Shown here in pieces: positions 31,511 through 64,000 of a stretch of DNA of 64,000 nt. The stretch is from Bacillus sp. CGMCC 1.16541 (GTDB lineage Bacteria > Bacillota > Bacilli > Bacillales > Bacillaceae_H): NCBI RefSeq assembly GCF_003184905.1, contig NZ_QFRU01000012.1, forward strand, positions 1-64,000, written 5' to 3'. A model generated the notes under the pieces. The model was given only the letters and a program-made list of their open reading frames with translations, was not told the origin of the DNA and did not search any database. A program made the translations under genes and the position numbers. Each line of letters opens with the position of its first letter. Position 1 is the stretch's first letter.

Positions 31511-31536
31511 ATTATTATAATTTAACAAAAACAAAT

Positions 31537-33618: not shown

Positions 33619-33718
33619 CCCTTTTCCCCCTTATGTAAAAATGATTGATGTGTCCAATGGTATTATACTATACCGCTAATTAACACTCACTAGATTTCTA
33701 ACACTACAAACATAAGAA

Positions 33719-33747
33719 ACGAGAGCTTAGGATAAAAAGCTCCCGTC
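33719..33747 (-). terminator. Terminator of the Cys-rich peptide gene
   Basis: Stem ACGAGAGCTT / AAGCTCCCGT with a short loop, 20 bp downstream of the leftward Cys-rich gene. Confidence 0.5.
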
Positions 33748-33766
33748 TGAATAGGATTAGTAAGCT

Positions 33767-33946
33767 TTACATTGGTTGAACACCCGATCCACCACAACAA
33801 CCACATCTTTTTCCACCGTGACAACAAGGGCAACATCCACTTCCCTGACAGTGGTGACATCCACGCCCACTACAACAACAGCACATACCAGCACCACCAC
33901 AATAACGACAACAGCCTGCACCGTGACAACAACGGCATTGGTGCAT
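33767..33946 (-). CDS. Metallothionein-like Cys/Gly-rich peptide (59 aa)
   Basis: Start at ATG 33946, chosen because GGAGGTG lies eight bases upstream. The upstream in-frame ATG at 33973 has no such site. The product has 19 Cys and about 15 Gly in 59 residues, without signal peptide. It is built of CC-containing units separated by Gly-x-Gly: CRCCHGAGCC, MCCCCSGRGC, QGSGCCPCCHGG and RCGCC. No known metallothionein family is recognised, but cytoplasmic metal sequestration is the obvious hypothesis. The other frames across this G/T-rich gene are also open and are artefacts. Confidence 0.7.
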   Translation of the reverse strand: MHQCRCCHGAGCCRYCGGAGMCCCCSGRGCHHCQGSGCCPCCHGGKRCGCCGGSGVQPM

Positions 33947-34011
33947 ACACTCACCTCCATAAAATAACCACACATAGTATATATATTTATGTAATATTAA
34001 ACTTAGGCGTT

Positions 34012-34027
34012 CCCCTTATATAAGGGG
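34012..34027. promoter_or_regulatory. 16-bp perfect palindrome upstream of the Cys-rich gene
   Basis: CCCCTTATATAAGGGG, about 65 bp upstream of the metallothionein-like gene. It resembles the G/C-flanked operators of CsoR-type or similar metalloregulators; the regulator is not identified. Confidence 0.45.
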
Positions 34028-34254
34028 GTAGCTCAACCATTTATCACATTTCCACATTAGTATAAAATTCAATAAATAAGATTTCCCCTAAAACGAACGT
34101 TTTTGGAACTTGAAATTATGACTTAAAAGACTACATAAAATCTACTAAATTTAAGTACCAAAAGCCATGTCCAAAAACAAAGGTCCTTTATTCGTTAAAT
34201 CATCCGTTTATGGTACTATTAAAGTTGATTAGTAAGGTTTTGGAGGTTAGATAA
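34028..34254. other. Region upstream of tnpR, expected res site
   Basis: About 225 bp without a gene. In Tn3 elements the resolution site lies directly upstream of tnpR, so it should be here. The three resolvase-binding dyads cannot be assigned with confidence by eye. Confidence 0.4.
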
Positions 34255-34803
34255 ATGAATTTTGGATATGCTCGTGTAAGTACAGAGGATCAAAATTTAA
34301 ATATGCAGTTTGATGCTTTAAAACAATATGGAGTAGACAAGATATACCAGGAAAAGCTTACAGGAACAAAAAAGGACCGTCCGCAACTTGAAGAAATGCT
34401 CAAAGGATTACGTAAGGGAGATAAGGTTGTTGTATACAAATTGGATCGGATATCTCGCTCAACCAAACACCTTATTGAGTTGAGTGAACATTTTACTGAA
34501 ATCGGAGTCGATTTCGTTTCCATTAGAGATAGCATTGATACCTCAACTGCAATGGGGAAATTCTTCTTTCGAACAATGGCAAGCATTGCAGAACTGGAAC
34601 GAGATATTATCAGTGAACGAACAAAGTCCGGATTAGACGCAGCCAGAGCAAGGGGAAGAATAGGTGGAAGACCAAGAAAAAAATCAGACAAGGTTCAAAT
34701 GGCATTAAAGATGTATGACAGTAAGGAATACGGCATTAAAGAAATTACAGAAGCAACGGGTCTCAGTAAGACTACCCTTTATCGTTATATTTATAGCAGA
34801 TAA
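34255..34803 (+). CDS. tnpR: Tn3 resolvase, serine recombinase
   Basis: 182 residues with the catalytic Ser in YARVSTEDQN (about residue 9), the conserved KLDRISRSTKHLIEL and a C-terminal HTH (YGIKEITEATGLSKTTLYRY). GGAGG precedes the ATG. It resolves the cointegrate formed by TnpA. The tnpR-tnpA order in one direction resembles Tn551/Tn917-type elements. Confidence 0.93.
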   Translation: MNFGYARVSTEDQNLNMQFDALKQYGVDKIYQEKLTGTKKDRPQLEEMLKGLRKGDKVVVYKLDRISRSTKHLIELSEHFTEIGVDFVSIRDSIDTSTAMGKFFFRTMASIAELERDIISERTKSGLDAARARGRIGGRPRKKSDKVQMALKMYDSKEYGIKEITEATGLSKTTLYRYIYSR

Positions 34804-34836
34804 AAATCATTAGAGATAGTTAAGGTGGGAGAATTC

Positions 34837-38721: not shown

Positions 38722-39372
38722 TTACATTTTTTGTTCCTTATTAATTTTTTCCGTATGACGACAAGAAGGGAAAGAGGAACAGCCAAAAAAGCGAGTGCCG
38801 TTTCCATCTCGTACGACTAGATCCTGCCCGCACTTTGGACATTTACGAGGTTCTGGTGTGATATTTTCAAAGATTTCTCGTGCCTTGAAAACAGGATTGA
38901 CTTCATTAATAAACTTTTGAAGATCCGCACGATCTACTAAGGTCACATCACATGCAGCTGCAAGCTCTTTTGCTTGTTTCGTGAAATAACTATTGGTCAC
39001 AACCCACGCTTGATTCGCTGTATAATAAGCTTTTGCTCCATAAACTTCTTGGACAGCTGAAAGACTCACCCGATTTTTAGCACTATACCGTTTAGCTTGA
39101 ATCACAATCCTGTCCTTGCCTTTCATCACTAGATCAGCCCCAAAATCACCTGATTTTGGTGTTATCTGTGGTTTGTATCCTAGTTGTTGAAAAAGTGCTC
39201 GCAAATATACCTCAAATTGATACCCATCCATCTTATCAATATAAGGCATACCAGATTGAGCTAACTCTTTCATGTACCTCCGTTCACGAATGACACGGTA
39301 AGCAAATTGAGAAAGCTTAAATAAAATGATAATAAGAAAAAGATAAAACACGCTTTGAAACACTTTATCCAT
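38722..39372 (-). CDS. Membrane-anchored Mrr-like nuclease with topoisomerase-type zinc finger
   Basis: 216 residues: an N-terminal membrane segment (VFQSVFYLFLIIILFKL), then an Mrr_cat restriction-endonuclease fold (about 48-160). Its active site is visible as GDFGADLVMKGKDRIVIQAKR (D...QxK). A C-terminal zf-C4_Topoisom finger follows (KCPKCGQDL...FFGCSSFPSC). It overlaps the Toprim gene by 8 bp. It could act on transfer DNA at the membrane or on incoming DNA; the role is inferred. Confidence 0.82.
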   Translation of the reverse strand: MDKVFQSVFYLFLIIILFKLSQFAYRVIRERRYMKELAQSGMPYIDKMDGYQFEVYLRALFQQLGYKPQITPKSGDFGADLVMKGKDRIVIQAKRYSAKNRVSLSAVQEVYGAKAYYTANQAWVVTNSYFTKQAKELAAACDVTLVDRADLQKFINEVNPVFKAREIFENITPEPRKCPKCGQDLVVRDGNGTRFFGCSSFPSCRHTEKINKEQKM

Positions 39373-40354
39373 TCATTGAAAGCTCCTGTTCTGTTTGTTT
39401 ATTCCGGAGACGTGATGCTACAGGTTGAATGTTTTTTCCATTCTTCTTTAACTCGTCGTTCCAATCTTTGGCTCCCTTTGGAATATCTGCTCTTATTAAA
39501 TCAGCATTAACGATTTGGTTCATTTTGTAAATAAATTCTTTTCCCCCTTGGTCATTATCGACAGCTAACACCATTTCTTGAATGCTTAAGCCTTCTCTTC
39601 GAGCTTCGATATAAGATTGAGCAACAGTTTTAGGTTTTAAGCCATTCATACTAATAAGGCGTGTATTCTGCAATTGATTTTCCTGTATACTCCAATAAGA
39701 AAGTAGATCAATTGGGCTTTCAAAGAAATGAATCTTGTTTGGGCGACCAACATCAACTGAAAAGCCTGTATGTGGGTTATCGTTCGGTAAGACTTGTTTA
39801 AAAGAACCTCGTTTATTTTTTATCGAAGCTGTTCCTTGTCGATCTGCCCCAATCACCTTTCCCTTACCTCCATGTTCTCGCCATTTAAACACGACATTGT
39901 TCCGTTTGTCCTGGGCGATTAAATCTTTTTGAAGGAGCCAGTCAACTAATCGAGGATCTATTTTACGTTCTTTTATGAGATAGTCTTTTACTTTGCTTTG
40001 ATCCTTCACTTCTAACTCTTTTGGATAGCGAAAAGGCTCGTTGGATTTGGAATTAGTCTGCTGTTCATGAGAATGAGAAAGCTCTTTATAATCGCCTTTA
40101 TTGATATCTAATACAGCTTGTGGGAATGACATCCCATAATACATTTGAGCGAAACTGATTGCCCCGTATCCTGTTTCATTGCGGCTATTCCAAGCGTACA
40201 TATTTCCTTTGATGAGTAAGCTATCATGTTCCGTATGACGATAATACTTTCCTTCTTTCACAAAGGTTTCACCTTTGGCCTCCAGATACGACAACAAATC
40301 AATATCTCTCGCTTTCATAACCTCCTCCTCCTTGACATGTTTTCGTTCTCCCAC
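39365..40354 (-). CDS. DUF3991/Toprim primase-like protein
   Basis: 329 residues. The N-terminal DUF3991-like zinc-less domain (DLLSYLEAKGETFVKEGKYYR...YGAISFAQMYYG) is followed by a Toprim domain with the DxD motif VLAVDNDQGGKEF (about 265). The C-terminus has KDWNDELKKNGK. Such proteins occur next to relaxases and are thought to prime the transferred strand. GTG 40354 has AAAGGAGGG six bases upstream; ATG 40318, also behind an SD, is the alternative start. Confidence 0.82.
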   Translation of the reverse strand: MGERKHVKEEEVMKARDIDLLSYLEAKGETFVKEGKYYRHTEHDSLLIKGNMYAWNSRNETGYGAISFAQMYYGMSFPQAVLDINKGDYKELSHSHEQQTNSKSNEPFRYPKELEVKDQSKVKDYLIKERKIDPRLVDWLLQKDLIAQDKRNNVVFKWREHGGKGKVIGADRQGTASIKNKRGSFKQVLPNDNPHTGFSVDVGRPNKIHFFESPIDLLSYWSIQENQLQNTRLISMNGLKPKTVAQSYIEARREGLSIQEMVLAVDNDQGGKEFIYKMNQIVNADLIRADIPKGAKDWNDELKKNGKNIQPVASRLRNKQTEQELSMNG

Positions 40355-40432
40355 CTAAATCCCTCCTTTACTCCACGATATGAAAAAAGAGAGCTTTTCA
40401 GCCCTCCCATTCTGTCTAAACTTTTGCTTTTT

Positions 40433-41464
40433 TTAACGTTCCATTTCTTGTGTCTGGTCCCGTTTTTTTGAGGAAAATGCTCCACTGTTCCGTGCAAAAA
40501 ACTTTGTAAATCCATTCTGTGATTTCTCTTCTTTTTTCTGCTTGTCATGATCCTTTTTCTCTGTATCCAAAGCCTTTTCAAGCTTGGTTAATTTCTCACG
40601 TTGAGAATCAGTCAAATTCAGCTCTTTTAATTCCTGTAACACCTCTTTTTTTAGCTTGTACACCTTATCAAAGGAATGCTTTTGTTCAAACTCCTTCATT
40701 TTGGCCAAACGCTGCTCTTTCTCTTGAGGTGTTTCTTGCTTAAGCTGCTTTTCGACAGGAGCTTTTTCTGCTTCAGCTTCCTTTTTCTCTTCTTTAGAAG
40801 AATCCTTTTCATCTGATATGCCTAATTGAGCTAACAAGCTTTGTTTAAACAGCTGCTTATACTGTGTTTCTTCACTAGGCTGCTGCAAAGCTTCTAATAC
40901 TTCTTGTTTGTAACCTTCTTGATATCGGTCCTTCTCTTGTGCCTGTTTTCGTGCTTGAAACTGATGAGAAAGCTCGTTCTCCATGCCTTTCAATTGGTCA
41001 GGGGTGAACGTATTTTCCTTTAAAGCACTTGATTTCAACATGACATAATCGTTTTCTGCGTTCACACGGGCTAACATACTATCAATATCTTGAGGCTTTT
41101 CTTTTTCATAAGCCTGTAAAAACGTAATATAGCTTGTTTTGAGCTGTGTTTCTCGATCTTTCTCTAAAACAGGATTCACATCATGACTCTTCAAAAAATC
41201 AAGTGTTGCTTCACTTTCATAGGCTTGTTTTTGTCCTCTTTCATCAGTGGAAACAAGCAAAACCTGCGGTTTTTCCTCCCCTATAGCTGATTGTGTTAAG
41301 TAAACAGCACCAGAAGGTATGTCTTGCAGCTGTTCCCCACTGATGTTTGCCCAACCTGCCTCGATTTTTTCATTTTGTGGATGTTTCATGTACTTCTTTA
41401 ATTCACGTTTATCTGCAATAAGGGTGTTGAATTGATCATTTGAAAGAGATGTCACTTTTTTCAT
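40433..41464 (-). CDS. Unknown conjugation-operon protein, charged coiled coil
   Basis: 343 residues. The first ~110 form a mixed globular part (EAGWANISGEQLQDIPSGAVYL). The remainder is Lys/Glu/Gln-rich coiled coil. At about 125-165 it carries a module (DIDSMLARVNAENDYVMLKS) that is also found near the C-terminus of the ArdC-like protein next door. GGAGGAATC precedes the ATG. No known family; probably cytoplasmic accessory DNA-processing. Confidence 0.65.
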   Translation of the reverse strand: MKKVTSLSNDQFNTLIADKRELKKYMKHPQNEKIEAGWANISGEQLQDIPSGAVYLTQSAIGEEKPQVLLVSTDERGQKQAYESEATLDFLKSHDVNPVLEKDRETQLKTSYITFLQAYEKEKPQDIDSMLARVNAENDYVMLKSSALKENTFTPDQLKGMENELSHQFQARKQAQEKDRYQEGYKQEVLEALQQPSEETQYKQLFKQSLLAQLGISDEKDSSKEEKKEAEAEKAPVEKQLKQETPQEKEQRLAKMKEFEQKHSFDKVYKLKKEVLQELKELNLTDSQREKLTKLEKALDTEKKDHDKQKKEEKSQNGFTKFFARNSGAFSSKKRDQTQEMER

Positions 41465-41522: not shown

Positions 41523-42875
41523 TTACCTTTCGAGTTCCTGATCTTCTTTTTTCTTTTTGGTGGTGCCTGTACGTTTTTGGAGTTGCATGTGGTTACCCAC
41601 TTCCATACGGTCTTGAAAAGTAAGAGATTTCTCTTGAACTTGACCATTGATGATCCCCTTCTCATTTTTAGTGATGTTCGAATCGATCTGATGCTCAAGT
41701 TTCACGACTTCCTCCTTTGTCATCCAGCCATTTTTGATCGCTTGTGTTTTGGTTGAATAATATTTCTCTTCAGCCGTGACACGATTTAAAATGCTATCTA
41801 CATTTTGTGCCGATTCCTGTTGCTGCTTTTGTTTATAATCTTCATATCCTTCTTTCATTTTCTCTTGTACATTTTCAGAAGAAAGAGGATCTGCTTGCTG
41901 CTGTTTTTCATCGTTTTTTTCTGGTGACTGATTTTTTTCTCGTTCTTTTACCAACGTTTCTTCTATTGTTTCAATAAAGCCAACGGACGTTTCATGTACT
42001 TCTTTTAAAAGCTTGGTTTTATCTTCAAAGGTCTTTCCTTTCGTCCAGTGTGACAGGTATCCTAGAGAATACTCACTCGTATCAATGCCAAAATAAGAAG
42101 AAACGGTGTAAGCCGTCATTTCTGCCTGAAATTCTTTTTCGGCAGCTGTATAGTTTAGATGTGTCTCCTTTGTATGAAGTTTCGCATGAGCTAATTCATG
42201 TGCCAAAGTTTTTACATTTTGACGTTCAGAGTTGCGAGGATTTAGCGCAACTTCTTTTGTTAACGTGTAAGATACGCCCTTTGCGCTGCCCAGTTCTTCT
42301 TTAGGAGCAATGATGGAAATACCGTTCTTTTCTGCAATAGCTTCCATTCCTTTATAAAGTGCCTTGTAATCCTCTATATTGCCTTCTAACCAACGATTCG
42401 GAAATATCTTAGGTAAATCACTCGCTTTTGCGTTTGTCTGCGACACGTCAAAAACATGACCGACTGAAAAGTACAGTCGGCCTTGAGTGACTTCTTTTTT
42501 CCCCTCTTGAATTAGCTTCTTTTCTTGAGGAGTAGCTTTAGCAATGGACTTTAATTTTCCATTTTCATCTTTGAATTTGGGAACCGTTTTGTTTGGCACA
42601 AGAATTTTAATGCCTTTCTCTCCTTTATTGACAGAGAACCCTTTATCTTTCCAAAACTTAAATGAGCCAACAGCTTGAGCACCAAAAAACTGTTCTTGAA
42701 TAAGAGCCGTGTTCGACATCGAGTATTGATAAAACTTACCCATAAAAGATAAATAGTCTTTTAGTTCTTCGGCAGAATGAAAATGCTGCTCGACCTTCTT
42801 CTCCATCCCATTTGTTAACTCTTCAACCTCTTTACGCTTATCTTCGACGGATTTTTTCGCATAGGTTTTACTCAT
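41523..42875 (-). CDS. ArdC-like / M78 metallopeptidase protein
   Basis: 450 residues. The N-terminal ArdC/LtrC-type ssDNA-binding domain (SFMGKFYQYSMSNTALIQEQ, then GFSVNKGEKGIKILVP) is followed by a zinc metallopeptidase motif KTLAHELAHAKLH (HExxH, about 223). A Gln/Glu-rich linker and the short module VDSILNRVTAEEKY (about 375) complete it. Homologues accompany relaxases. Some ArdC proteins protect entering DNA from restriction. It overlaps the upstream gene by 8 bp. Confidence 0.8.
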   Translation of the reverse strand: MSKTYAKKSVEDKRKEVEELTNGMEKKVEQHFHSAEELKDYLSFMGKFYQYSMSNTALIQEQFFGAQAVGSFKFWKDKGFSVNKGEKGIKILVPNKTVPKFKDENGKLKSIAKATPQEKKLIQEGKKEVTQGRLYFSVGHVFDVSQTNAKASDLPKIFPNRWLEGNIEDYKALYKGMEAIAEKNGISIIAPKEELGSAKGVSYTLTKEVALNPRNSERQNVKTLAHELAHAKLHTKETHLNYTAAEKEFQAEMTAYTVSSYFGIDTSEYSLGYLSHWTKGKTFEDKTKLLKEVHETSVGFIETIEETLVKEREKNQSPEKNDEKQQQADPLSSENVQEKMKEGYEDYKQKQQQESAQNVDSILNRVTAEEKYYSTKTQAIKNGWMTKEEVVKLEHQIDSNITKNEKGIINGQVQEKSLTFQDRMEVGNHMQLQKRTGTTKKKKEDQELER

Positions 42876-51314: not shown

Positions 51315-51353
51315 GATTCTTCTCCTCCCTATAAAAAAGAGAAGTAACGCTTG

Positions 51354-54011
51354 TTACTTCTCTTCTGGTTTATTTCGTTTCTTTGATCCAAGGTTTCGTA
51401 AATCTCGCCCTGTATTTCGTCCAATTTGATAAGAACGTTTTGTTTTATGGATTGTTTGCGAATTATCAATACGTTCTTTTACCTTTCCTACCCCTCCCTT
51501 AAAGTTATCTTTTACCACTTGTGCAATATTGCGTGTTTCTATCCGGTTCTGATCTGGCATTGGAATATCGTTTGTTGAAGCAGGAACTGTGTCTTTTTCA
51601 ATTGGTTGTTTTCCTTGGCGAGGTTCCTGCGTAGCTGCCACTTGGGCTTGGGCTTGATCCATCCCTGTCGGCATGGAAACAGACGGTTCTCTTGTTGGTG
51701 TAGGATAGCTTACGTTTTCTACAGGAGAGCCACCTTCACTTGTACTTCCACCGTAACCGGAAGTTTGAATTTCTTCATGAACAGGTGTACTCACATTTCC
51801 TACAGAAGATCCGCCTTCACTTGTACTTCCGCCGTAACCGGAAGTTTGAATTTCTTCATGAACAGGCGTACTCACACTTCCTACAGAGGAGCTGCCTCCA
51901 TTTGTACTTCCACTATGACCGGAAGCTTGCATTTCACCATGTAGAGGAGTACTTGCCTTTCCTACAGAAGAGCTGCCTCCATTTGTATTTCCACTATGAC
52001 CGGAAGCTTGCATTTCACCATGTAGAGGGGTACTTGCCTTTCCTACAGAAGAGCTGCCTCCATTTGTACTTCCACTATGACCGGAAGCCTGCATTTCACC
52101 ATGTAGAGGAGTACTTGCCTTCCCTACAGAGGAGCTGCCTCCATTTGTGTTTCCACTATGACCAGAAGCCTGCATTTCATCATGGAGAGAAGCACTTCCA
52201 CTTTCTACAGAAGATCCTGTACCTTCACTTGCCCTTTCACTTTGATCAGAAGCTTGCATTTCATCATGAAGTGAAGCACTTCCACCTTCTACAGAAGATC
52301 CAGTACCTTCACTTGTGCTTTCACTTTGACCAGAAGCTTGCATTTCATCATGGAGAGAAGCATTCCCACCTTCTACAGAAGATCCAATACCTTCATTTGC
52401 ACTTTCACCATAACCAGAGGCTTGCATTTCATCATGGAGAGATATATTTCCACCTTCTACAGAGGAAGTTGATCCCTGACTATCAGTAGAAACACCTGCT
52501 GCTTGCATCTCATCCTGTAAAGAGCTTCCTTGACCTTGACCTGCTCCTTTTCCTTCCGAAGAATTTCCTTCAGTATTTTTGCCCCCTTCTTGCTTTTCAG
52601 TAGAAGATAACCCTTGTTGTTGAGCTTTCTGCTCATTTCCTGCGTTTTGACCTTTAGAAGCAACGTTTCCTTTCTCACCTGCCATTCCTGCCTTTTTCAT
52701 TTCTTCATGTAGAGCTGGCTGTTTTTCTTTATTTCCTTGTGTAGCTAACCCTTTACCAAGACCTCCAACTCCTGCTGCTGTCTGAAGAGCACCACTACCA
52801 AGTCCTTTTCCTACATTACCAATACCTTTTGAAAGGTTGGCTCCCCCTTTTGCTGTTCTGCCCATCATGTTGATGCCACTTTCAAGTCCTTTTGCCATCG
52901 CAAACCCTCCTGCTAGAGCGCCCCAACCACTTTTTAATCCTGCATCAATCCCAAAGAGACGTTCACACATAATCGGGCCATCTACGACAGCAATACTAAA
53001 GGCAATTAATGCGATAAGGTACGGAATACCTTCTAGCTTATCGCTAATAAAGACCGTTCCCATTAAATAGACCTTCATAGATATAAAGATCATAATTGTC
53101 ACTAGAAATGTATTCAGGATATTTTTTAGAACAGCTTTTAATTTCTGCCCATCTGCTACATCGGCAGGCGCAACTAATTGAGCTAAAATCGCGTTGAATC
53201 CTAGCTCGTAACATAGTTTTGCTAACTTAATAGAGGTAAATAATAAGGTCATGCCTATAACAAAAAGTGAGATGGCAATTGTCCAGAAGTTCCATGACCA
53301 TCGGTAATAAAGTTCGGGAAAGAAATCAAACCATCCATTATCTAATTCTACTAATCCTTCTTTTCCATTAGGTGCAAGAGCTGCCTTATGTGTAATGATT
53401 TTTTGTCCATCATCGGATAGCTTATCTTTCTCACTCACTTTAAAATCCTCATCCATCTTTTCGGTAATATCGATCATCATAATATTTTTTTGAGGCACTT
53501 TATTCGGTTCTTTTAATTCTAGACTCTTCCACTTGGTAAGATCAAATTGCGCTACATCTGTTAGATTACTTTTAATAATCTTTTCACTTACGGTTCCTTT
53601 TTCATTTAAATCAACAGCTTCAATGGCTTGATCGGTGAACTTATCAGCTTTTAACATACTTGTATTTAATAAAAGTAAGACTGCCATTGAGATAAAAATG
53701 TTAATCATAATTTGTTCACGATTGACTTTTTTCTGAATAATCAACATATAGCCGATATACAGAAAGGAAAAGGCCAGTAACACATATAAAAAGGGTTGAA
53801 TCTTCGTAATAAAATCTTGAATGTCAGGAGAATTAAAAAACGATTTAACGCCTAATACACTGTCTGTAATCCCTTCTAGTCCATCTACTAGAAATGAGAG
53901 GACTTGAATACATCCCCACCCCAATTTCCGTAATAAATAAGTAAGGATATTTCCAACATCTAAGTACTCCGAAAACTCATGGAGCTTTTCAAGAATTTCT
54001 TCATCTTTCAT
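51354..54011 (-). CDS. VirB6/TrbL-like channel protein with a repetitive C-terminal tail
   Basis: 885 residues. The N-terminal ~400 has at least six membrane segments and a large extracytoplasmic loop, in the pattern of VirB6-like proteins of Gram-positive T4SS (FFELY-RWSWNFWTIAISLFVIGM). From about residue 500 to 770 the tail consists of about ten tandem 25-28-residue units led by SLHDEMQASG, PLHGEMQASG or PVHEEIQTSG. A Lys/Arg-rich end follows. The repeats are rich in Ser/Gly and probably disordered. AAGGAG precedes the ATG. Confidence 0.8.
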   Translation of the reverse strand: MKDEEILEKLHEFSEYLDVGNILTYLLRKLGWGCIQVLSFLVDGLEGITDSVLGVKSFFNSPDIQDFITKIQPFLYVLLAFSFLYIGYMLIIQKKVNREQIMINIFISMAVLLLLNTSMLKADKFTDQAIEAVDLNEKGTVSEKIIKSNLTDVAQFDLTKWKSLELKEPNKVPQKNIMMIDITEKMDEDFKVSEKDKLSDDGQKIITHKAALAPNGKEGLVELDNGWFDFFPELYYRWSWNFWTIAISLFVIGMTLLFTSIKLAKLCYELGFNAILAQLVAPADVADGQKLKAVLKNILNTFLVTIMIFISMKVYLMGTVFISDKLEGIPYLIALIAFSIAVVDGPIMCERLFGIDAGLKSGWGALAGGFAMAKGLESGINMMGRTAKGGANLSKGIGNVGKGLGSGALQTAAGVGGLGKGLATQGNKEKQPALHEEMKKAGMAGEKGNVASKGQNAGNEQKAQQQGLSSTEKQEGGKNTEGNSSEGKGAGQGQGSSLQDEMQAAGVSTDSQGSTSSVEGGNISLHDEMQASGYGESANEGIGSSVEGGNASLHDEMQASGQSESTSEGTGSSVEGGSASLHDEMQASDQSERASEGTGSSVESGSASLHDEMQASGHSGNTNGGSSSVGKASTPLHGEMQASGHSGSTNGGSSSVGKASTPLHGEMQASGHSGNTNGGSSSVGKASTPLHGEMQASGHSGSTNGGSSSVGSVSTPVHEEIQTSGYGGSTSEGGSSVGNVSTPVHEEIQTSGYGGSTSEGGSPVENVSYPTPTREPSVSMPTGMDQAQAQVAATQEPRQGKQPIEKDTVPASTNDIPMPDQNRIETRNIAQVVKDNFKGGVGKVKERIDNSQTIHKTKRSYQIGRNTGRDLRNLGSKKRNKPEEK
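51735..52520 (-). repeat. Tandem coding repeats in the VirB6-like gene
   Basis: About ten units of 75-84 bp, three subtypes. Units 6-8 are nearly identical in protein (alternating HSGNT and HSGST). The ends are more divergent, suggesting recent expansion in the middle. Confidence 0.8.
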
Positions 54012-54261: not shown

Positions 54262-56844
54262 TTAAGCTTCTTGTTCTTCCATCTCATGTTTCAAATTCCT
54301 AATAATGGTATTTATTTTCGTTTGAAGAAGTTGGTGAACATTTTTACTTAGTTGGTCACTAACTCCTAGCATATTTAATTCCTCTTCAAACTCACTCATG
54401 GACTGTTGTTCAATCTCTTCCACCGTTTTATTCATTGCTTTTGGTAAGTGTACTTTTAGAGCAGTAGAAACGTTCTTATCTTCCCCGAAGAACTCTTTGA
54501 CTGTCTTAGTTTTATAGTTCTCATACGTTAGAGAAGTAAACGGATCTTCGGTTAGTTCCTCTTCAATTTCCACTGATGGAGCTTGTGATTGAAAAGGAAA
54601 GAAATTATGAATGACCAAGGATCTTGGATTGACTTGTTCATGTAAAGACGAAATATCAATATCTAGAATCGAACGATCCGTATTAAAGTCCTCTCCGAGG
54701 TATTCCCAACGGTATTTCAAGGCTGTTTTTCCAGTATTATAAATCGGATGTGCTTTAATTCTCTGACGTGCTTTATCTTGACGTTTTACCACACGCACAA
54801 CCACACTTTCTCCTTCTTTAAGTTCCATTAATTCATTGGGTGTTAATAAAGGCTTTCCATCTACTCCCTCTGTTTTACTTTTATCCGTTGATAGCCCTTT
54901 CCCACTTCGAGAGGTAGAATTGATAGTACCGTCCCCTAATTTTTGTGAAATGGTCTTCGCTGTTTCGTAGTTATTGCTTAAAATATAGATCGTATTCCCA
55001 CAGTTTCCTTCAATCGTTTCAGCATCATTACCATATTTATTTTTTAGTTGTGCAAAGGTTTGAATCACTAAGTTAAAACGTATATTTCGTCCTAAACAAA
55101 CCGTGATAATGTTGGACATTCCCTCGATTGCCGGCATATTTCCGAACTCATCGAGTAAAAAAATGACTTCTCGATGACACTTGTTTCCTTTCGCTAATGA
55201 AGCATTTTTGGCGAGTATATAATACAACTGACGAACAAAAATGGAGGCAATAACGTGATTACTAGAATCATAATCCGGTGTGACCATGAAAATAGCGATT
55301 GGTTTTTTAAAACAGGTCACTTCTTTTACATGAATACTTGGATGTTGCTTCTCCACCGTAAACGTCGTAGCTCCTGTTTCTTTTGTGATCTTATTAATCG
55401 ATATAACGGTTTCAAGCCTCGATGAAGTAACAATTTTATCACTCAGCTTTTCAGTTAACGTAATTTCATCATTCTGCTTTACTTCGCTTGTAAAGTTGAC
55501 CTCAAATAACCCTTTGGCATCCGTTTTAATCGTTTCTTTTTGACCATCTGGAAAGGTCATCTCTAAGCGAGTAAGAGGTGCTGCTGTTCCTTTGATCGTT
55601 TTTCCAAAGCCCACACGCTTTAAATCGACGCTATTTTTAGAGGTCATCTTGGCGATTTCATCAAACGTAAAAATGGATAGTCCATTCATCGTTTGGGTGA
55701 AGATCCCGCCTCTTGTCGTACCTTTTGAGAAGTTTGAAGTCGCATACTGCATTTTGGCGACACTCTCTGTTGGAAGCCCATCAAAGTACAAGTCTAACGC
55801 ATTTTGCGTATCCCCTTTTTTATTAATCACAACCTCTTTCGATCCTAACTCCGACAACATATTCGCCACCGTGTACATCGTGATTTTATTTTCTTCCTTT
55901 TCCTTAATACACTTATCTGTTACAGCTAGTATCATGGCGTTACATAAACTCATGGCACATTGTTGCCAGAATGGATCTTTGGCATTTGGATTGTAATAAA
56001 GCGTATACGATAGCGTGTTACATAACGCTTGAGCTGTTGAATAATCACCATCTTTATACGTTTCTTTTATCATTTCTAAAAGGTTATAACTCATCGATTC
56101 TAATGGATTGAGTAAGTTTAAAACTTCAACATGATAGCCTCTTTCCTCTAACGTGTTTTTAGAAGCAGCAAGCAACTCGCCTTTGGGATCATTGCACACT
56201 AGGGAAGGCTGTTTTTCAGCTCGTGAGTAGATATCAATCGTTGGAAAAACAAAGGTTTCCCCTTTTCCTGATCGTGTAATCCCAATGATTAAATTATTAA
56301 CGGGTGTGTCATCAATCAGCATGTAACTTTTCTTTGTAAAGAATCGATGTGTGTGGAGCAGCTTCTGTATTCCCTTTAACGCTTTGTACTCTTTCCAGGT
56401 TTGAATCAGGTCATACGTTTGGATACGAGAAACAGGAACCCCACCTCCACCTTGATAGGTTGTCGTTTTTTCAGGTACTTTTCGATATTGCTTTTTTAGT
56501 TCACGTCTTGTTGTAAAGCGTCCCGACCCTTTCTGATTGTGGTTTAAATCTTTAAAGTTAGATCGAATGTTGTAAGCGAATTTTGCCGTTAATAAGGCAG
56601 CTACTAGACACATCGCTCCATATAAAGACGAGTACTGTTGAAGATGAATCTCTGTCAAAAAAGATTTGTCCAAATGAAAAGGCTGCGGTTCAAATACATC
56701 GCTAAACGTTGTTTGAACAAGGTTTCGCATCATGTTAAAAAAAAAGTTCAAGATGAGAAGAATAGACACAAAAAAACAAGCACTTAAAGGAATAAGTACT
56801 TGTTTTTCAGCGAACACATATTTGATGGATTTATTAGGTTGCAT
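54262..56844 (-). CDS. VirD4-type coupling protein with inserted beta domain
   Basis: 860 residues. Two N-terminal membrane segments, Walker A in IGITRSGKGETFVFPT (about 186), CNDPKGELL and Walker B in VIFLLDEFGNMPAIEG (about 561). Between about 410 and 510 an extra region rich in beta pattern (RLEMTFPDGQKETIKTDAKG, VNFTSEVKQNDEITLT) interrupts the ATPase core and resembles a bacterial Ig-like domain. The C-terminal ~150 residues are charged. It links the relaxosome to the channel. Confidence 0.88.
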   Translation of the reverse strand: MQPNKSIKYVFAEKQVLIPLSACFFVSILLILNFFFNMMRNLVQTTFSDVFEPQPFHLDKSFLTEIHLQQYSSLYGAMCLVAALLTAKFAYNIRSNFKDLNHNQKGSGRFTTRRELKKQYRKVPEKTTTYQGGGGVPVSRIQTYDLIQTWKEYKALKGIQKLLHTHRFFTKKSYMLIDDTPVNNLIIGITRSGKGETFVFPTIDIYSRAEKQPSLVCNDPKGELLAASKNTLEERGYHVEVLNLLNPLESMSYNLLEMIKETYKDGDYSTAQALCNTLSYTLYYNPNAKDPFWQQCAMSLCNAMILAVTDKCIKEKEENKITMYTVANMLSELGSKEVVINKKGDTQNALDLYFDGLPTESVAKMQYATSNFSKGTTRGGIFTQTMNGLSIFTFDEIAKMTSKNSVDLKRVGFGKTIKGTAAPLTRLEMTFPDGQKETIKTDAKGLFEVNFTSEVKQNDEITLTEKLSDKIVTSSRLETVISINKITKETGATTFTVEKQHPSIHVKEVTCFKKPIAIFMVTPDYDSSNHVIASIFVRQLYYILAKNASLAKGNKCHREVIFLLDEFGNMPAIEGMSNIITVCLGRNIRFNLVIQTFAQLKNKYGNDAETIEGNCGNTIYILSNNYETAKTISQKLGDGTINSTSRSGKGLSTDKSKTEGVDGKPLLTPNELMELKEGESVVVRVVKRQDKARQRIKAHPIYNTGKTALKYRWEYLGEDFNTDRSILDIDISSLHEQVNPRSLVIHNFFPFQSQAPSVEIEEELTEDPFTSLTYENYKTKTVKEFFGEDKNVSTALKVHLPKAMNKTVEEIEQQSMSEFEEELNMLGVSDQLSKNVHQLLQTKINTIIRNLKHEMEEQEA

Positions 56845-58483: not shown

Positions 58484-58550
58484 GTTTCTCCATTCCTTTC
58501 ATCTAAAAATGAGCATAGAAAAAAGCTATACAATCAACTGTATAGCTTTC

Positions 58551-59153: not shown

Positions 59154-59618
59154 TTATTCTTCGAAATACAGTTCTTTCGATGTTTCAATAAAATGAGAAA
59201 GTTCCGTTTCTAACTGAGATGGATCATAGTCACTTAATTTAATCTGTTGTTTTAATTCACCATCCTTATAAGCAGCTAGAGTTTCCGCATTTTGTGTCAA
59301 TCCATAATCTGTTTGGTTTTTTGAACCATCATATTGAGGATCGTTACTATCTAGTTCCTTTCCGTCTACCCCCTGTTCTTTTAAGGCTTTTTCTACCTCA
59401 TTCATGTAAACATCTCGTTTGCTTTCCTCAAAGGAATACATCACAAATCCTGTGCCATCTTCTTTCATAAATTTTTTCATTTCAAGGGGATCTAACTCTT
59501 CTAGTTCACCATTTCCTTTCACTTCACTTGAATTGTTGGAAGAGACAAACGCTGTGCCTATTCCTAGAGCCACAACGATTCCTGCAACCGCAGAAAGTAA
59601 CCATTTTTTGTTTTTCAT
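59154..59618 (-). CDS. Secreted/membrane-anchored unknown protein, possible thioredoxin-like fold
   Basis: 154 residues from ATG 59618 (AAGGAGG six bases upstream). N-terminal signal or anchor (KWLLSAVAGIVVALGIGTAFV). The mature part (EMKKFMKEDGTGFVMYSFEE, EVEKALKEQGVDGKEL) has a spacing reminiscent of a thioredoxin fold but no Cys pair. It is the first transfer gene after the long leader. Confidence 0.55.
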   Translation of the reverse strand: MKNKKWLLSAVAGIVVALGIGTAFVSSNNSSEVKGNGELEELDPLEMKKFMKEDGTGFVMYSFEESKRDVYMNEVEKALKEQGVDGKELDSNDPQYDGSKNQTDYGLTQNAETLAAYKDGELKQQIKLSDYDPSQLETELSHFIETSKELYFEE

Positions 59619-59639
59619 AACCATCCTCCTTCGTTCTTA

Positions 59640-60100
59640 ATATTCAGACATAACAATCGATTCTGAAACCTACCGAGAGTAATATTTTACCATATGTTTA
59701 GCGATCATCTCTGTCTTTTCAAGGCTATGAAAGGAAATATATACCCGTTTCTGGCTGGAAGGGCAAACCCTATATTGGCATGCATAGTTTTCACTAAGCC
59801 CAATAATGCACAACGTTTTCGGCATGTACGAAGAACCTCGTGTATCTACTGTTTGGAATGTTGTCGCTTCTTCGGAGTTACCCTCACGCCACCATTCTTC
59901 ACAGATCGTGGATACACCGTCACTGTTTTATTGCTAGATCACCGATGAGTTTTAGGACGCACTCATCGAACCTTATCGTTATCGTATACCTTAACCCCCT
60001 TGTGATCCGTTTAGGGGAGGCACGCAATATGTAATTGTCAAGGTTCCCTTACTCGTGCTCTCGGCACGTTTCAAAATCGCTTGTATGCTGCATCTAAGAA
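59640..60100 (-). ncRNA. Long structured leader, candidate conAn-type antitermination RNA
   Basis: About 460 bp with no credible gene, within a leftward operon otherwise packed with a few bases between genes. It is richer in GC than nearby spacers and has several hairpins: CGATGAGT/ACTCATCG (59943-59968), CGTGC-TCTCG-GCACG (60054-60068) and TATTGG/CCAATA (59773-59805). Large RNA elements in 5' leaders of conjugation operons that drive processive antitermination (conAn) are known in Gram-positive plasmids such as pLS20. Match to that family is inferred, not tested. Confidence 0.55.
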
Positions 60101-60355
60101 CTAGCAGGTCTTTTGTAAAACTTCCTTCAATTCTTCATCTTTTTTTCTTCGCTTGGCGACGATGGTATGAGCCTGATCCATCACTGAACGTACTTCATAA
60201 TAAATATCAGCTACACGTTTGACATCGCCTGTGCCTTTTTCTACTGCTATCCCTCCTTTTAACGTATACAACTTTCCATCAAAGGTTTTGGCACTTTTCG
60301 CCCGTGCATCTGATATATCATAGAATGCTAGTCGCTTTTGTGCTTCCATGTTCAT
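60101..60355 (-). CDS. Small protein at the head of the conjugation operon
   Basis: 84 residues (or 82 from ATG 60349, which has better spacing from AAGGGG). Begins MNMEAQKRLAFYDISDARAK, then LKGGIAVEKGTGDVKRVAD, and has a basic helical end. No family recognised. It lies directly before the long leader, so it is a candidate for the protein partner (processivity factor) of an antitermination system; this is inference. Confidence 0.6.
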   Translation of the reverse strand: MNMEAQKRLAFYDISDARAKSAKTFDGKLYTLKGGIAVEKGTGDVKRVADIYYEVRSVMDQAHTIVAKRRKKDEELKEVLQKTC

Positions 60356-60386: not shown

Positions 60387-60593
60387 TTAGTTCATATCCT
60401 TCTGACCTGGTAAGAAAATATCTTCTAATCTAAGATCCAGTGCCTCTGCGATTTTCTTCATATTTTCAAACGTTGGATATTGACGAGTCCCATTTTCAAT
60501 TTGAGAAATAGTTGGTTGCGGGACTCCTGATAACTGAGATAAATAAGTTTGGCTCCATTTCTTCTCTAACCTCTTTTCTCGTATGGTCTTTAT
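60387..60593 (-). CDS. Xre-family regulator, probable ATA start
   Basis: 68 residues if it begins at ATA 60593, which has AAGGAGG exactly eight bases upstream and gives the usual N-terminus (M)KTIREKRLEKKWSQTYL. The in-frame GTG at 60614 lies upstream of that ribosome binding site and has none of its own. The HTH is YLSQLSGVPQPTISQIENGTR. It is leftward, leading the conjugation operon, and likely controls it. Confidence 0.75.
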   Translation of the reverse strand: MKTIREKRLEKKWSQTYLSQLSGVPQPTISQIENGTRQYPTFENMKKIAEALDLRLEDIFLPGQKDMN

Positions 60594-60639
60594 TTCCAGC
60601 ACCTCCTTGAGCACATTATATTCGATAATATATAATTTG

Positions 60640-60740
60640 TAAACAGATTAAAGATAATTTTTTTACAAATATTTTTAGGTTTTTATTATTTACGAATTTT
60701 TTCTGATAAGATAAATCTAAATACAAATATTTTATAAGGA
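60640..60740. promoter_or_regulatory. Divergent promoter/operator region
   Basis: Very AT-rich DNA between the two Xre genes with repeats TTACAAATATTTT and ATACAAATATTTT and related TTTGTAAA, TTTACGAATTTTT. Likely binding sites of one or both regulators. Confidence 0.5.
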
Positions 60741-61262: not shown

Positions 61263-61331
61263 TAACAAAAAAAAGCAAAATGCAATGTGAATATTAGCTA
61301 CAAACTAACTCCTTACTGCATTTTGCTTTTT
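61263..61331 (-). terminator. Terminator of the response regulator operon
   Basis: Stem AAAAGCAAAATGCA / TGCATTTTGCTTTT; on the minus strand it is followed by T8. One arm overlaps the last codons of the response regulator. Confidence 0.7.
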
Positions 61332-61900
61332 ATAATTCGTAATTGTCTTTTTATTGTTTCGACAGATTTATATAATTTGTCAGCAATTTGTGATTTATTT
61401 AACCCTTGTTCCCTTAAGCTATAAACTTCACGTTCAGTTGGTGTTAATATCTTTATTTTTCTTTCTTTCCTTAACTCTCCAACTAATACATTTGTAACAT
61501 CAGCATGGAGACTAACTTTCCCTCTGAATGCTTCTCTAATAGCGTTAGGAATATCTCTATAAGACGTTTTTGTTATGTAGTTAACAACACCTGTATCAAA
61601 GCATTCAAGTATAATATCCTTTTCATCCCAAGATGTTAACATAATGATTTTCTTTAAACCTTTTTCATATAAGTGCCTAGCGACTTCTAAACCATTCAGG
61701 TTTTCTTCATCACCCTCATCTTTTAATAACGTTAAATCCAATAAAACTACATCAATATTATTATAATCAACTTGTAAGGCTTCCTCTTTATTGTAAGCTT
61801 GTTTAACAACAGTAATATTGTTCTCTTTTTCTATATAATCACTTATACATTGCATCCAAACAGGATCATCTTCTACAATCATTAATTTTATTTTGTCCAT
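61313..61900 (-). CDS. NarL/LuxR-type response regulator
   Basis: 195 residues. Receiver domain with MIVEDDPVWM, phosphoacceptor Asp in VVLLDLTLLKDEGDEENLNG, Thr/Ser in IIMLTSWDEK and Lys in YITKTSYRD. The C-terminal HTH is LTPTEREVYSLREQGLNKSQIADKLYKSVETIKRQL. It overlaps the kinase gene by 13 bp. The DNA target is unknown. Confidence 0.92.
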   Translation of the reverse strand: MDKIKLMIVEDDPVWMQCISDYIEKENNITVVKQAYNKEEALQVDYNNIDVVLLDLTLLKDEGDEENLNGLEVARHLYEKGLKKIIMLTSWDEKDIILECFDTGVVNYITKTSYRDIPNAIREAFRGKVSLHADVTNVLVGELRKERKIKILTPTEREVYSLREQGLNKSQIADKLYKSVETIKRQLRIIKSKMQ

Positions 61901-63282
61901 AGGTTATTCTCTCCTATTAGTTTAGAATTAAATTGTTCATTTACCCTAAATTCAATAATTCTCTTAGAAGGCAAAGTTAATGTAAAAGTCGTTCCTTTTT
62001 TGACCTTACTTTTCACTAAAATATCGCCACCATGTTTTTTGAGGACATTGTAACAGTAGGTTAAACCAAGTCCAAAATTTGTTTGATTATGTTTAGTTGA
62101 ATAAAATGGATCTAATACATGAGTAAGTTCATCTTTTTCGATTCCTTTACCCTCATCTATAAAGTCAATATGAATCTTTTTTCGAGTCTTGTAGACTTTT
62201 ATTAAAATTACACCTTGACCATTCATTGCTTCACTGGCATTTTTGATTATATTTAAATAAGTTTCTTGTAATTGCTCAGTATCACCAAATACTATAGCAT
62301 CGACTTCATATTGTTTAATGATTGTGATATCAGGATGCATATTTAAATAAGGTTTAAGCAAGTTAATTGCTGAATCTATACTTTCTCTGAGGGAAAATTC
62401 AGATTCTTTAAGGTTTATAGCGTCTATCTTACTTTGAATACGCCTTGAAAGTTCTAAAACGTGATTTGTTGAATTTAAAACTAACCCTAGATTTTCAGCA
62501 GACCTTTCTTCAGGTGGCATTTGTTCTTTAATCTGATTCACTAATAAATCAATTTTAGCTATTTCATTTTTTATTGTATGGTTGAACAACGCTGTACCGG
62601 AACGCGCTGCTTTCATTGTGGAATCACGCATTTCCTTTTCAAACCTAATCCGCACTCCAAGAATTCCATATTTAACTCCAAAGTAAACAAAAACAAGAAA
62701 TTGAATTACTATAATCCAAGGATTATAATGCCATACGCCCACAATCCCCAACGCTTCTAAGATAATATTTGTGGTCAGCGCAAATGTAAACATTGGGACT
62801 ACAAATACACAAGTCAGTATTTTTCTTCTCTTAATAATTGGACGATCTTCTCGCCATGCGGCGTATATCAATAAAATATTAGCTACTATTACATAGGGTA
62901 CTACCCAAATTGCTAAAATACGGAAATCAACTTTAAACTCTGGATATACTTGAAACATAAGATACATAATAAAAATCGGAATTAGTAAGAGTACCTTTAA
63001 TATATTTCTCTTTCTTACATTACCAATTGCATCCGAATAAACTATTCCAAAAATCAACATACCATATGGTGTGAAATAGTGTCCTATCGATGTAAATATC
63101 CCATCCAAATGTAATACCCATTCTGGCCGATGTATCCCTTTTCCTAGTAAGGCTCCTATACCTCCAAAACCTCCACAAAATCCTATAACACTTGCCCATC
63201 TAATTTTCTCATTTTGAGGATTTCTAAAAAAAAGAATTGAACTCATTAACCACAGTAAAGCCACCATTATAAACATAAACAT
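61888..63282 (-). CDS. Membrane sensor histidine kinase
   Basis: 464 residues. About seven membrane segments (residues 1-225) form the sensor. The H-box GTALFNHTIKNEIAKID (about 250) is followed by HATPase motifs (NIIKNASEAMNGQG, IDEGKGIEKDEL, FGLGLTYCYNVLKKHGG). The large membrane sensor suggests a lipid-like or peptide signal. Partner is the overlapping response regulator. Confidence 0.9.
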   Translation of the reverse strand: MFMFIMVALLWLMSSILFFRNPQNEKIRWASVIGFCGGFGGIGALLGKGIHRPEWVLHLDGIFTSIGHYFTPYGMLIFGIVYSDAIGNVRKRNILKVLLLIPIFIMYLMFQVYPEFKVDFRILAIWVVPYVIVANILLIYAAWREDRPIIKRRKILTCVFVVPMFTFALTTNIILEALGIVGVWHYNPWIIVIQFLVFVYFGVKYGILGVRIRFEKEMRDSTMKAARSGTALFNHTIKNEIAKIDLLVNQIKEQMPPEERSAENLGLVLNSTNHVLELSRRIQSKIDAINLKESEFSLRESIDSAINLLKPYLNMHPDITIIKQYEVDAIVFGDTEQLQETYLNIIKNASEAMNGQGVILIKVYKTRKKIHIDFIDEGKGIEKDELTHVLDPFYSTKHNQTNFGLGLTYCYNVLKKHGGDILVKSKVKKGTTFTLTLPSKRIIEFRVNEQFNSKLIGENNLWTK

Positions 63283-63289
63283 ATGTCCA

Positions 63290-64000
63290 TTACCTCTTTA
63301 GCTTATTTTGTAGAAACGAAATGGTATCCTTTTCAATTTTTTTTCGTTTAAGTACTATTCCTGCATGCCCACAATTGTAGACATAACGTGTAGGTTTACC
63401 CCAAGACTCCCACAACAGATCTGCATCTTGGATATGAACGTACTGATCATGTTTAGCAGAAATTAGTAGTATATTTTCTTTATTAATTTTTGGAAGTGCT
63501 TGATTTGGCTCGACTAATTCCCAATACTTTACTAGATCGTTGTAATTAACTCCATGAGACTCTAAGTCCCTTCTTATATACTTACCAGGAATTGTATTCC
63601 ATATTGAATAACTAAGACGATTAGAATAAAATATAGAAACTAATGCATCAATTTCTGACTCAAGTGTAGCAACTAAATTTGAGATAAAGCCACCGAGACT
63701 AACACCAATTATAATTACGGGACCTTGTTTGTTATTTTTCATCCATTGAATTAGAGCCCTTAAATCAACGATTGCTTGCCTAGTAGATTCAACAGTCCTA
63801 TTAATATTGGCACTAACCATAAATTCTCCACTGTAAAGTGATGCTTCTGGCTGACGTTCTAAATGGTAAGGAAGTGTATAGTAGTACATGTTCCATCCTA
63901 AGTTATTCATAATTGAATCATGAAAAATCTTCTTTACCCTATCAAATCCTTTCATTCGCCAACCATGTACAAAAATAACATTAGGCTTATTTCCAACTTC
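63290..64000 (-). CDS. Alpha/beta hydrolase (5' end outside the window)
   Basis: The reading frame continues to the right edge, where it reads ...KPNVIFVHGWRMKGFD, an oxyanion-type HGW segment. Therefore the ATG at 63955 is internal. Nucleophile elbow IIGVSLGGFISN (Ser), acid in LISAKHDQYVH, and His in YNCGHAGIVL are all visible. It lies 7 bp after the kinase start region in the same direction, so hydrolase-kinase-regulator form one unit. Substrate unknown. Confidence 0.85.
   Translation of the reverse strand, partial: EVGNKPNVIFVHGWRMKGFDRVKKIFHDSIMNNLGWNMYYYTLPYHLERQPEASLYSGEFMVSANINRTVESTRQAIVDLRALIQWMKNNKQGPVIIIGVSLGGFISNLVATLESEIDALVSIFYSNRLSYSIWNTIPGKYIRRDLESHGVNYNDLVKYWELVEPNQALPKINKENILLISAKHDQYVHIQDADLLWESWGKPTRYVYNCGHAGIVLKRKKIEKDTISFLQNKLKR

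What the first reader, a model, noticed from the sequence alone, without database searches (positions are those of the whole stretch)
59640..60355. Long structured leader plus small protein: candidate conAn-type processive antitermination system
The leftward transfer operon is tightly packed, yet about 460 bp between the first gene (60101-60355) and the first transfer gene is uncoded, GC-richer and full of hairpins. Conjugative plasmids of Gram-positive bacteria are known to carry a large leader RNA and a small protein that let polymerase pass terminators (conAn). The layout here fits, but both RNA and protein may be a new variant.
Basis: partly seen in the sequence, partly recalled or inferred. 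Interest (0 to 1): 0.8.

Follow-up and report, generated by a model that had tools for sequence, protein, structure and literature searches.

The report
Antiterminator RNA-protein pair leading transfer operon
At the front of a plasmid's DNA-transfer operon sits a small protein gene followed by a large folded RNA that very probably let RNA polymerase ignore stop signals, a distant variant of the known conAn system, and comparing its relatives suggests a repeated RNA knot shared by many Gram-positive conjugative plasmids.

Summary
In detail: 59625-60100(-) is a 476-nt non-coding, strongly structured leader between an 84-aa gene and the first transfer gene. (1) Profile comparison links the 84-aa family to the N-terminal part of pLS20 ConAn1 (E 1.1e-16). 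(2) A covariance model of the 3' RNA domain, built without pLS20 relatives, has its best hit downstream of ConAn1 in 7 of 7 pLS20-type loci, individually weak. (3) The RNAs carry hairpins of one plan, N-G-U-U-stem-loop-(x)C-N'-(n)AAA-stem, with N pairing N' as in an H-type pseudoknot: 66 of 70 distinct modules are Watson-Crick there although this was not required; 114 such modules lie downstream of 67 protein genes against 4 upstream and 0-2 in shuffles. Also seen: HTH-ConAn1 fusions, a boxA-like element, and the same hairpin in leaders of enterococcal pheromone plasmids pCF10 and pAM373, which might explain long-range cis-acting activation. Function is untested, the protein link to the enterococcal plasmids is inconclusive, and the founding 2021 paper could not be read.

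The parts
60615..60643 (-). promoter-like site TTTACA-17-TATAAT, probable main transfer promoter
   Evidence: consensus scan, 11 of 12; such scans found fewer sites than shuffles in this stretch (45 against 60.2), so it is only a candidate
60387..60614 (-). small Cro/C1-type HTH gene, probable first gene of the operon; a gene of this kind is fused to the ConAn1-like domain in Exiguobacterium, Planococcus and Lysinibacillus
   Evidence: PF01381 E 2.2e-17; fusions
60101..60355 (-). 84-aa ConAn1-like protein
   Evidence: hhalign of its family against the pLS20 ConAn1 family, prob 98.8, E 1.1e-16
59634..60100 (-). conAn2-type leader RNA closed by a long helix P1
   Evidence: fold z -3.25; conserved in 41 plasmids
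60058..60100 (-). P1 5' strand (core CGATTTTGAAACGTGCCGAGAG, 60079-60058)
   Evidence: 21 pairs with one mismatch allowed, maximum of 40 shuffles 14
59634..59679 (-). P1 3' strand, ends next to the AGGAGG of the first transfer gene
60028..60043 (-). boxA-like CCTTGACAATTACATA
   Evidence: 13.3 of 15, 3 of 500 shuffles as high; matrix made after seeing the sequences; own rrn leader has AACTTTGAAAACTGAACA
59943..59972 (-). pseudoknot hairpin H-A: GGU ... CC in the loop, AAAA before the 3' stem
   Evidence: strict descriptor hit
59812..59837 (-). hairpin H-B: GGU 59837-59835 with GCC 59823-59821; 3-bp stem 59830-59828/59816-59814 (an alternative helix 59829-59825/59812-59808 is also possible)
   Evidence: alignment A6: pair 2-19 canonical in 31 of 31 distinct rows with 4 pair types; alternative from RNAalifold on the 17-sequence subset
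59773..59805 (-). helix P4: 59805-59800 with 59778-59773
   Evidence: 94.4% of cells paired, all 4 counted pairs with double changes
59742..59773 (-). shared 3' hairpin H-C AUAGGGUU-stem-GCCAGAAA-stem: GGU 59769-59767 with GCC 59755-59753
   Evidence: pair 90-109 is G-C in 17 and A-U in 14 of 31 distinct rows; equivalent hairpin in pLS20, Listeria and enterococcal plasmids
59154..59624 (-). first transfer gene after the leader, hydrophobic N-terminus (by eye); position of ses in the pLS20 family
58523..58548 (-). terminator-like hairpin between two transfer genes
51338..51363 (-). terminator-like hairpin over the end of the pLS20_p028-family gene (palindromic; one search lists it on the + strand)
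   Evidence: gene NF045890 E 3.6e-133
40388..40407 (-). terminator-like hairpin between genes 40433-41464 and 39365-40354

Best explanation
A conAn-type processive antitermination system. Transcription from the promoter near 60615-60643 makes an mRNA for the HTH protein and the 84-aa ConAn1-like protein, then the leader 60100-59634. The leader folds into one domain closed by P1, with a boxA-like strand near its 5' end and three hairpins that each tie a loop triplet back to a 5' flanking triplet (H-type pseudoknots). The folded RNA stays with the polymerase that made it and makes it ignore intrinsic terminators; the ConAn1-like protein keeps it so over the transfer operon of about 22 kb (its end was not determined). 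Shown here: homology of protein and RNA, conserved pairings, terminator-like hairpins at gene ends. Inferred: the promoter, antitermination itself, binding to polymerase, boxA use, and the idea from the HTH fusions that the HTH protein helps load ConAn1 at the promoter.
For: RNA: model R1, trained without pLS20 relatives, has its best hit downstream of ConAn1 in 7 of 7 pLS20-type loci (six found with pLS20 ConAn1, one, L090, assigned by eye), E 2.4e-4 to 0.15; in the 50-kb pLS20 stretch 22.7 bits against 11.4 for the runner-up. Covariation on a sequence-only alignment: 83.2% of cells paired against 35-47% for slid partners, score 0.528 against 0.11-0.145. Modules: 66 of 70 distinct Watson-Crick at N:N'; 114 downstream, 4 upstream, 0-2 in five shuffles. 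P1: at least 21 pairs in 18 of 25 RNAs examined. Gene order as in the pLS20 family: ConAn1, RNA gap, Ses, T4SS genes. That ConAn1 and conAn2 give antitermination in pLS20 is stated in PMC8955417.
Against: I have no functional data for any leader of this type. R1 E-values in pLS20-type loci are individually weak, and six of the seven loci are only 3.2-3.5 kb long, so only pLS20 itself is a demanding test of place. BLASTP finds no similarity between the window protein and pLS20 ConAn1, and the C-terminal half of ConAn1 has no counterpart. In one search two measures do not exceed shuffles (pairs with a double change 13 against 11.6; further pair types 34 against 32.9), the H-B and H-C stems are paired in only 74.7% and 68.5% of cells, the third pseudoknot pair of H-B is missing in 11 of 31 rows, and the structure was drawn from the same sequences. 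RNAalifold prefers another H-B helix in the 17-sequence subset. Terminator-like hairpins: 13 in operon sense but 11 on the other strand, 1-3 in shuffles. In the window only H-A passes the strict module descriptor. P1 of at least 21 pairs was not found in 7 of 25 RNAs. 8 of 67 loci have no strict Watson-Crick module.
Confidence: 0.86

Rival explanations
1. rrn-type antitermination: the boxA-like strand recruits NusB/S10 and does the work; the hairpins are scaffold and the small protein is not involved.
For: 22 of 40 sequences scored (39 leaders and canT) had at most 25 of 500 shuffles as high; close match to the genome's own rrn leader; Tn916 canT carries TTCTTTGAAAACTGAATA.
Against: Of the 22, the L024 site lies in the next gene and the L110 site inside an annotated gene. 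None of the 7 pLS20-type or 4 Exiguobacterium leaders in the set reached that level. The matrix was made after looking, and L073 was scored on a chosen 260-nt stretch.
Confidence: 0.06
2. A cis-acting leader that controls translation or stability of the first transfer mRNA (riboswitch-like or protein-sensing), with no effect on elongation.
For: P1 ends next to the ribosome-binding site of 59154-59624; highly structured.
Against: Does not explain the ConAn1 homology or the RNA similarity to pLS20 conAn2.
Confidence: 0.05
3. A replication, transfer-origin or other DNA-level structure rather than an RNA.
For: Long inverted repeats in a plasmid.
Against: Modules keep their orientation and lie downstream of the protein gene, hardly upstream; the MobL relaxase gene lies 15 kb away.
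Confidence: 0.02
4. A hidden conserved small gene.
For: 51-aa and 84-aa ORFs exist in the region.
Against: ORFs not kept and frame-breaking indels in five of six relatives.
Confidence: 0.01

Closest known systems
conAn of pLS20 (ConAn1 protein + conAn2 RNA, Bacillus subtilis natto)
   Same: Place at the start of the transfer operon, order protein-RNA-next gene, ConAn1 N-terminal domain, 3' RNA hairpin with loop-to-flank pairing, long closing helix.
   Different: 84 instead of 172 aa; three module hairpins against one found in pLS20; boxA-like strand in the window, none scored in pLS20; an HTH gene in the operon; two-component genes upstream (by synteny) where the pLS20 family has Rap-Phr.
canT of Tn916 (RNA processive antiterminator)
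   Same: Large cis-acting RNA of a Gram-positive conjugative element; boxA-like strand.
   Different: No clear module found in it, also with a relaxed descriptor; works without other Tn916 genes according to passages of PMC11658703.
EAR / epsC RNA (RF01735)
   Same: RNA antiterminator of bacilli, as described in the introduction of PMC8955417.
   Different: No Rfam match in the window; R1 reports nothing up to E 5 in the 4 of 12 fetched EAR loci that were searched; the 12 read by eye show no such module.
Pfam PF17362 (pXO2-34, unknown function)
   Same: Below-cutoff similarity: 11 of 17 ConAn1-like proteins match at E up to 1, best E 7.2e-4.
   Different: The window protein scores 16.3 bits against a cut-off of 30.8; the plasmid it is named after was not fetched.

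Membership tests
conAn | Protein homologous to ConAn1 | tested here: met
   hhalign prob 98.8, E 1.1e-16; BLASTP pair negative
conAn | Large RNA homologous to conAn2 directly after it | tested here: met
   R1 best hit downstream of ConAn1 in 7 of 7 pLS20-type loci, individually weak; shared hairpin
conAn | Located at the start of a large conjugation operon | tested here: met
   VirD4, p028, VirB4-like, MobL genes follow; an HTH gene precedes it in the same direction; co-transcription not tested
conAn | Multiple intrinsic terminators inside the operon | tested here: inconclusive
   13 in operon sense, 11 antisense, 1-3 in shuffles; three at gene ends
conAn | RNA gives antitermination, protein gives processivity | not testable with these tools
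   needs a reporter assay
EAR (RF01735) | Match to the Rfam covariance model | tested here: not met
rrn-type boxA antitermination | boxA bound by NusB/S10 | tested here: inconclusive
   boxA-like sequence only
NusG paralogue systems (LoaP, RfaH) | NusG/KOW-type partner protein | tested here: not met
   no such Pfam or NCBIfam match for the 84-aa protein at E up to 0.1; the structure prediction did not run

The most novel reading that the evidence does not exclude
conAn RNAs form one superfamily built of tandem H-type pseudoknot modules, and it reaches the enterococcal sex-pheromone plasmids: the leaders behind prgR of pCF10 and behind the corresponding small genes of pAM373 are conAn2 RNAs, so the cis-acting, orientation-dependent activation over more than 10 kb reported for pheromone-inducible functions is processive antitermination, perhaps with PrgR-type proteins as very divergent ConAn1.
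Probability: 0.4. Interest if true: 0.82.

Novelty: new variant of a known kind. Interest (0 to 1): 0.62.

Why it matters
It gives the conAn class a concrete, mutable structural core (a triplet pairing repeated up to three times per RNA) and a minimal 84-aa protein partner, so how an RNA makes polymerase terminator-proof over tens of kilobases becomes directly testable. If the enterococcal link holds, it offers a mechanism for a positive-control effect described in 1992.

Tried and rejected
Rfam at gathering and at E up to 5: nothing. BLASTP of the window protein with pLS20 ConAn1: nothing, hence the profile test. The search for related loci with two protein alignments failed for lack of conserved stretches. 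RNAalifold on A6 recovered P4 and the H-C loop-flank triplet but neither hairpin stem; on the 17-sequence subset it gave P4, the same triplet and an H-B helix that competes with mine. NF041439 (TraE_Enteroc) search of 299 genomes: no hit anywhere, controls included, so uninformative. NF041439 does not match PrgR or the three other enterococcal proteins scanned. The pAM373-type and PrgR-type proteins against the ConAn1 profile: hhalign prob 3.3 and 12.3, E 0.013 and 0.0024; against each other prob 0.3; inconclusive. HMMs A2, A8, A3 against pAM373 ORFs of 40 aa or more: nothing passed the inclusion threshold. EAR and canT as members of the module family: not supported. A z-score for P1 from whole-duplex energies was uninformative, many near zero; the longest-helix test replaced it. 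Structure prediction of the protein never ran. L111 lacks the module: its leader matches the pAM373 type and then breaks off before a recombinase gene.

Dropped before counts: the module tables cover 67 loci; nine near-duplicates were left out by name, and L008, L011, L093, L095, L096 (short contig or fragments), earlier copies such as L007, L009, L010 and the enterococcal loci were not entered. A6 holds 32 of 34 extracted 3' domains (L003 and L036 left out).

Full report
Observation. Between the 84-aa ORF 60101-60355 and ORF 59154-59624, both on the minus strand, lie 476 nt without a kept gene. The stretch is GC-richer than the adjoining genes, though not than the pilin gene further on, and folds better than all 100 shuffles, z -3.25. 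It is conserved in 41 PLSDB plasmids, 40 Priestia and one Bacillus, and the protein in 62 records.

Surroundings. Leftwards follow a TrbC-like pilin (below the Pfam cut-off), a CD1115-type VirD4 (E 2.8e-158), a pLS20_p028-family protein (E 3.6e-133) and a VirB4-like ATPase (E 7.7e-87, below that model's cut-off), then a lysozyme/NlpC protein, a MobL relaxase (E 1.9e-115) and a Toprim protein. So this is a T4SS transfer operon of about 22 kb; its end was not determined. Upstream are a 75-aa HTH gene in the same direction and a divergent HTH gene, with a promoter-like site between them. The order kinase, response regulator, divergent HTH, HTH, small protein, leader gap is annotated in B. subtilis PJ-7 and P. 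filamentosa plasmids; the window's own kinase and regulator are named by this synteny, not by a family search.

Protein. A 17-sequence alignment of the window family against 5 pLS20-type ConAn1 proteins gives hhalign probability 98.8, E 1.1e-16 over 66 columns, covering the N-terminal part of ConAn1. pLS20 conAn1 is called ORF28 in passages of PMC11730352; I placed it by the annotated pBatNRS213 order Rco, ConAn1, Ses and its 61% identical pLS20 counterpart. The A2 profile also hits the pLS20-type locus G601 at E 1.0e-6 and L090 at 8.1e-6. In Exiguobacterium, Planococcus and Lysinibacillus the domain is the C-terminal part of a protein annotated as HTH regulator, and five more loci read alike by eye. 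In the window HTH and ConAn1-like proteins are neighbours; I infer that the HTH part may help load ConAn1 at the promoter.

RNA. Lining up the leaders showed one hairpin plan. Its 3'-most copy, AUAGRGUU-stem-..GCY-nAAA-stem, was found in most leaders, among them the Priestia, Halobacillus-type, Planococcus, Exiguobacterium, pLS20 and Listeria ones, but not in this form in L014, L025, L026 and L082 (B. subtilis PJ-7 / Virgibacillus type, which carry other copies of the module), nor in L024, L033, L056, L057, L088, L094. On a MAFFT alignment of 32 3' domains without pLS20 relatives, the structure with both pseudoknots has 83.2% of cells paired against 35-47% for partners slid by 1-3 columns, covariation 0.528 against 0.11-0.145, and 142 cells with double changes against a shuffled mean of 45.8. 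Two measures do not exceed shuffles: pairs with a double change (13 against 11.6) and further pair types (34 against 32.9). The H-B and H-C stems reach only 74.7% and 68.5%, in part because the alignment is off by one or two columns there. The structure was drawn from these sequences, which favours it. The key pairs are canonical in 31 of 31 distinct rows: A-U, C-G, G-C or G-U at columns 2-19, G-C or A-U at 90-109; the pair at 4-17 is missing in 11 of 31. RNAalifold itself predicted the 90-92/107-109 triplet and P4, but in the 17-sequence subset a different H-B helix.

Module statistics. A descriptor that did not ask N and N' to pair found 70 distinct modules in 67 loci; 66 are Watson-Crick there (A-U 31, G-C 29, C-G 6), 2 U-G, 2 U-U. 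Downstream regions hold 118 hits, 114 Watson-Crick, in 49.8 kb; upstream regions 7 and 4 in 49.5 kb; five dinucleotide shuffles 2-6 and 0-2; 59 of 67 loci have at least one Watson-Crick module. In the window only H-A passes this strict descriptor; H-B and H-C rest on the alignment. The pseudoknot is inferred from covariation; its energy was not computed.

Homology with pLS20 conAn2. Model R1, built from those 32 domains, was run over 11 loci not used in training, filters off. In seven pLS20-type loci (six found with pLS20 ConAn1, plus L090, assigned by eye) its best hit lies downstream of the ConAn1 gene, E 2.4e-4, 0.0022, 0.017, 0.019, 0.035, 0.038 and 0.15. Singly these are weak, and six of the loci are short; in the 50-kb pLS20 stretch the hit (22.7 bits, runner-up 11.4) falls in the gap between conAn1 and the next gene. 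The four other loci, of the PJ-7/Virgibacillus type, score E 5.5e-4, 0.10, 0.12 and 0.42.

Closing helix. With one mismatch allowed, 18 of 25 leaders have a 5'-3' helix of at least 21 pairs, maxima of 40 shuffles 12-19; 7 do not within the stretches searched. The sequences of these helices differ between groups while pairing is kept.

boxA. The window has CCTTGACAATTACATA at 60043-60028. A matrix made after seeing the leaders scores 22 of 40 sequences (39 leaders and canT) with at most 25 of 500 shuffles as high, but one of these sites (L024) lies in the next gene and one (L110) inside an annotated gene, and none of the seven pLS20-type and none of four Exiguobacterium leaders reach that level. 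The genome's own 16S leader holds GAACTTTGAAAACTGAACAAAGCG. That boxA binds NusB/S10 is recalled knowledge. This part is a lead, not a result.

Terminators. Thirteen terminator-like hairpins lie in operon sense over 24001-60620, eleven in the other sense, 1-3 in six mononucleotide shuffles; looser scans give 13 against 10.8 and 20 against 12.3 expected, both strands together. Those at 58523-58548, 51338-51363 and 40388-40407 lie at gene ends, where an operon without antitermination would be cut. This supports the model modestly.

Enterococcal plasmids. The module occurs in the leader of pCF10 behind prgR (so named in homologous records) and an unnamed 73-aa gene, and in pAM373 behind two small unnamed genes. 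R1 gives its best hit in each plasmid there, E 0.073 and 0.022, next best 2.4. Of four further records, L112 and L114 hit (E 0.016, 0.04), L113 hits weakly (0.24) and carries the strict module, and L111 lacks it. The proteins upstream resemble ConAn1 only doubtfully (hhalign prob 12.3 and 3.3). NF041439 (TraE_Enteroc) matches 6 of 8 ConAn1-type proteins scanned, all below its cut-off, E 3.4e-4 to 0.029, but none of the four pCF10 and pAM373 proteins scanned; so a link to TraE1 of pAD1 remains a guess. The 1992 paper on cis-acting control over more than 10 kb was seen only as a title in the reference list of PMC6540685. Passages of PMC7117660 speak of antitermination at IRS1 and of TraE1; none of those shown proposes a conAn-type system.

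Literature. PMC8955417: abstract and sections 3, 10, 14 read, plus a term search; [quoted passage not shown] PMC11658703, PMC11730352, PMC7117660, PMC6540685: passages only. The founding papers gkab360 and gkad333 are not held, so I cannot say whether leaders of this type or the pseudoknots are already described there. Searches of the held library listed no paper that by title or abstract start joins conAn with pseudoknots, boxA or pheromone plasmids.

Verdict. I file the element as a new variant of conAn: same plan and homologous parts, with a minimal protein, a multi-module RNA and different upstream genes. The main new content is the repeated loop-to-flank pairing and its reach.

Noticed in passing
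L110:9475-9504(+) (pCF10) and L109:33680-33709(-) (pAM373): conAn2-type pseudoknot hairpin in the leaders of enterococcal pheromone plasmids, upstream of surface and transfer genes.
   Followed up: partly
L022, L023, L024, L027, L028 (annotated); L031, L035, L036, L055, L080 (by eye): ConAn1-like domain fused to an HTH domain in one gene of about 160-190 aa.
   Followed up: partly
L021 (Listeria grayi pLGUG1) about 2318 and 2572: Two copies of the 3' hairpin about 250 nt apart, one G-C and one A-U at the pseudoknot pair.
   Followed up: no
window 61313-63955: Three genes that by synteny with the B. subtilis PJ-7 plasmid are response regulator, histidine kinase and alpha/beta hydrolase; kinase and regulator also in P. 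filamentosa. Perhaps the signal that switches transfer on.
   Followed up: no
window 54262-56844: VirD4-like protein with a weak Big_6 (bacterial Ig) match at residues 414-466, ahead of its C-terminal ATPase match at 513-683 (E 0.049).
   Followed up: no
window 51354-54011: pLS20_p028-family protein whose C-terminal half holds repeats around LHDEMQASG.
   Followed up: no
window 28713-37791: Tn3-family transposase, cytochrome P450 and heavy-metal P-type ATPase beyond the transfer operon.
   Followed up: no
canT region, L110 about 42066-42081(-): Tn916 canT holds CTTTGAAAACTGAATA, like rrn boxA; the words boxA and NusB do not occur in the main text of PMC11658703.
   Followed up: partly
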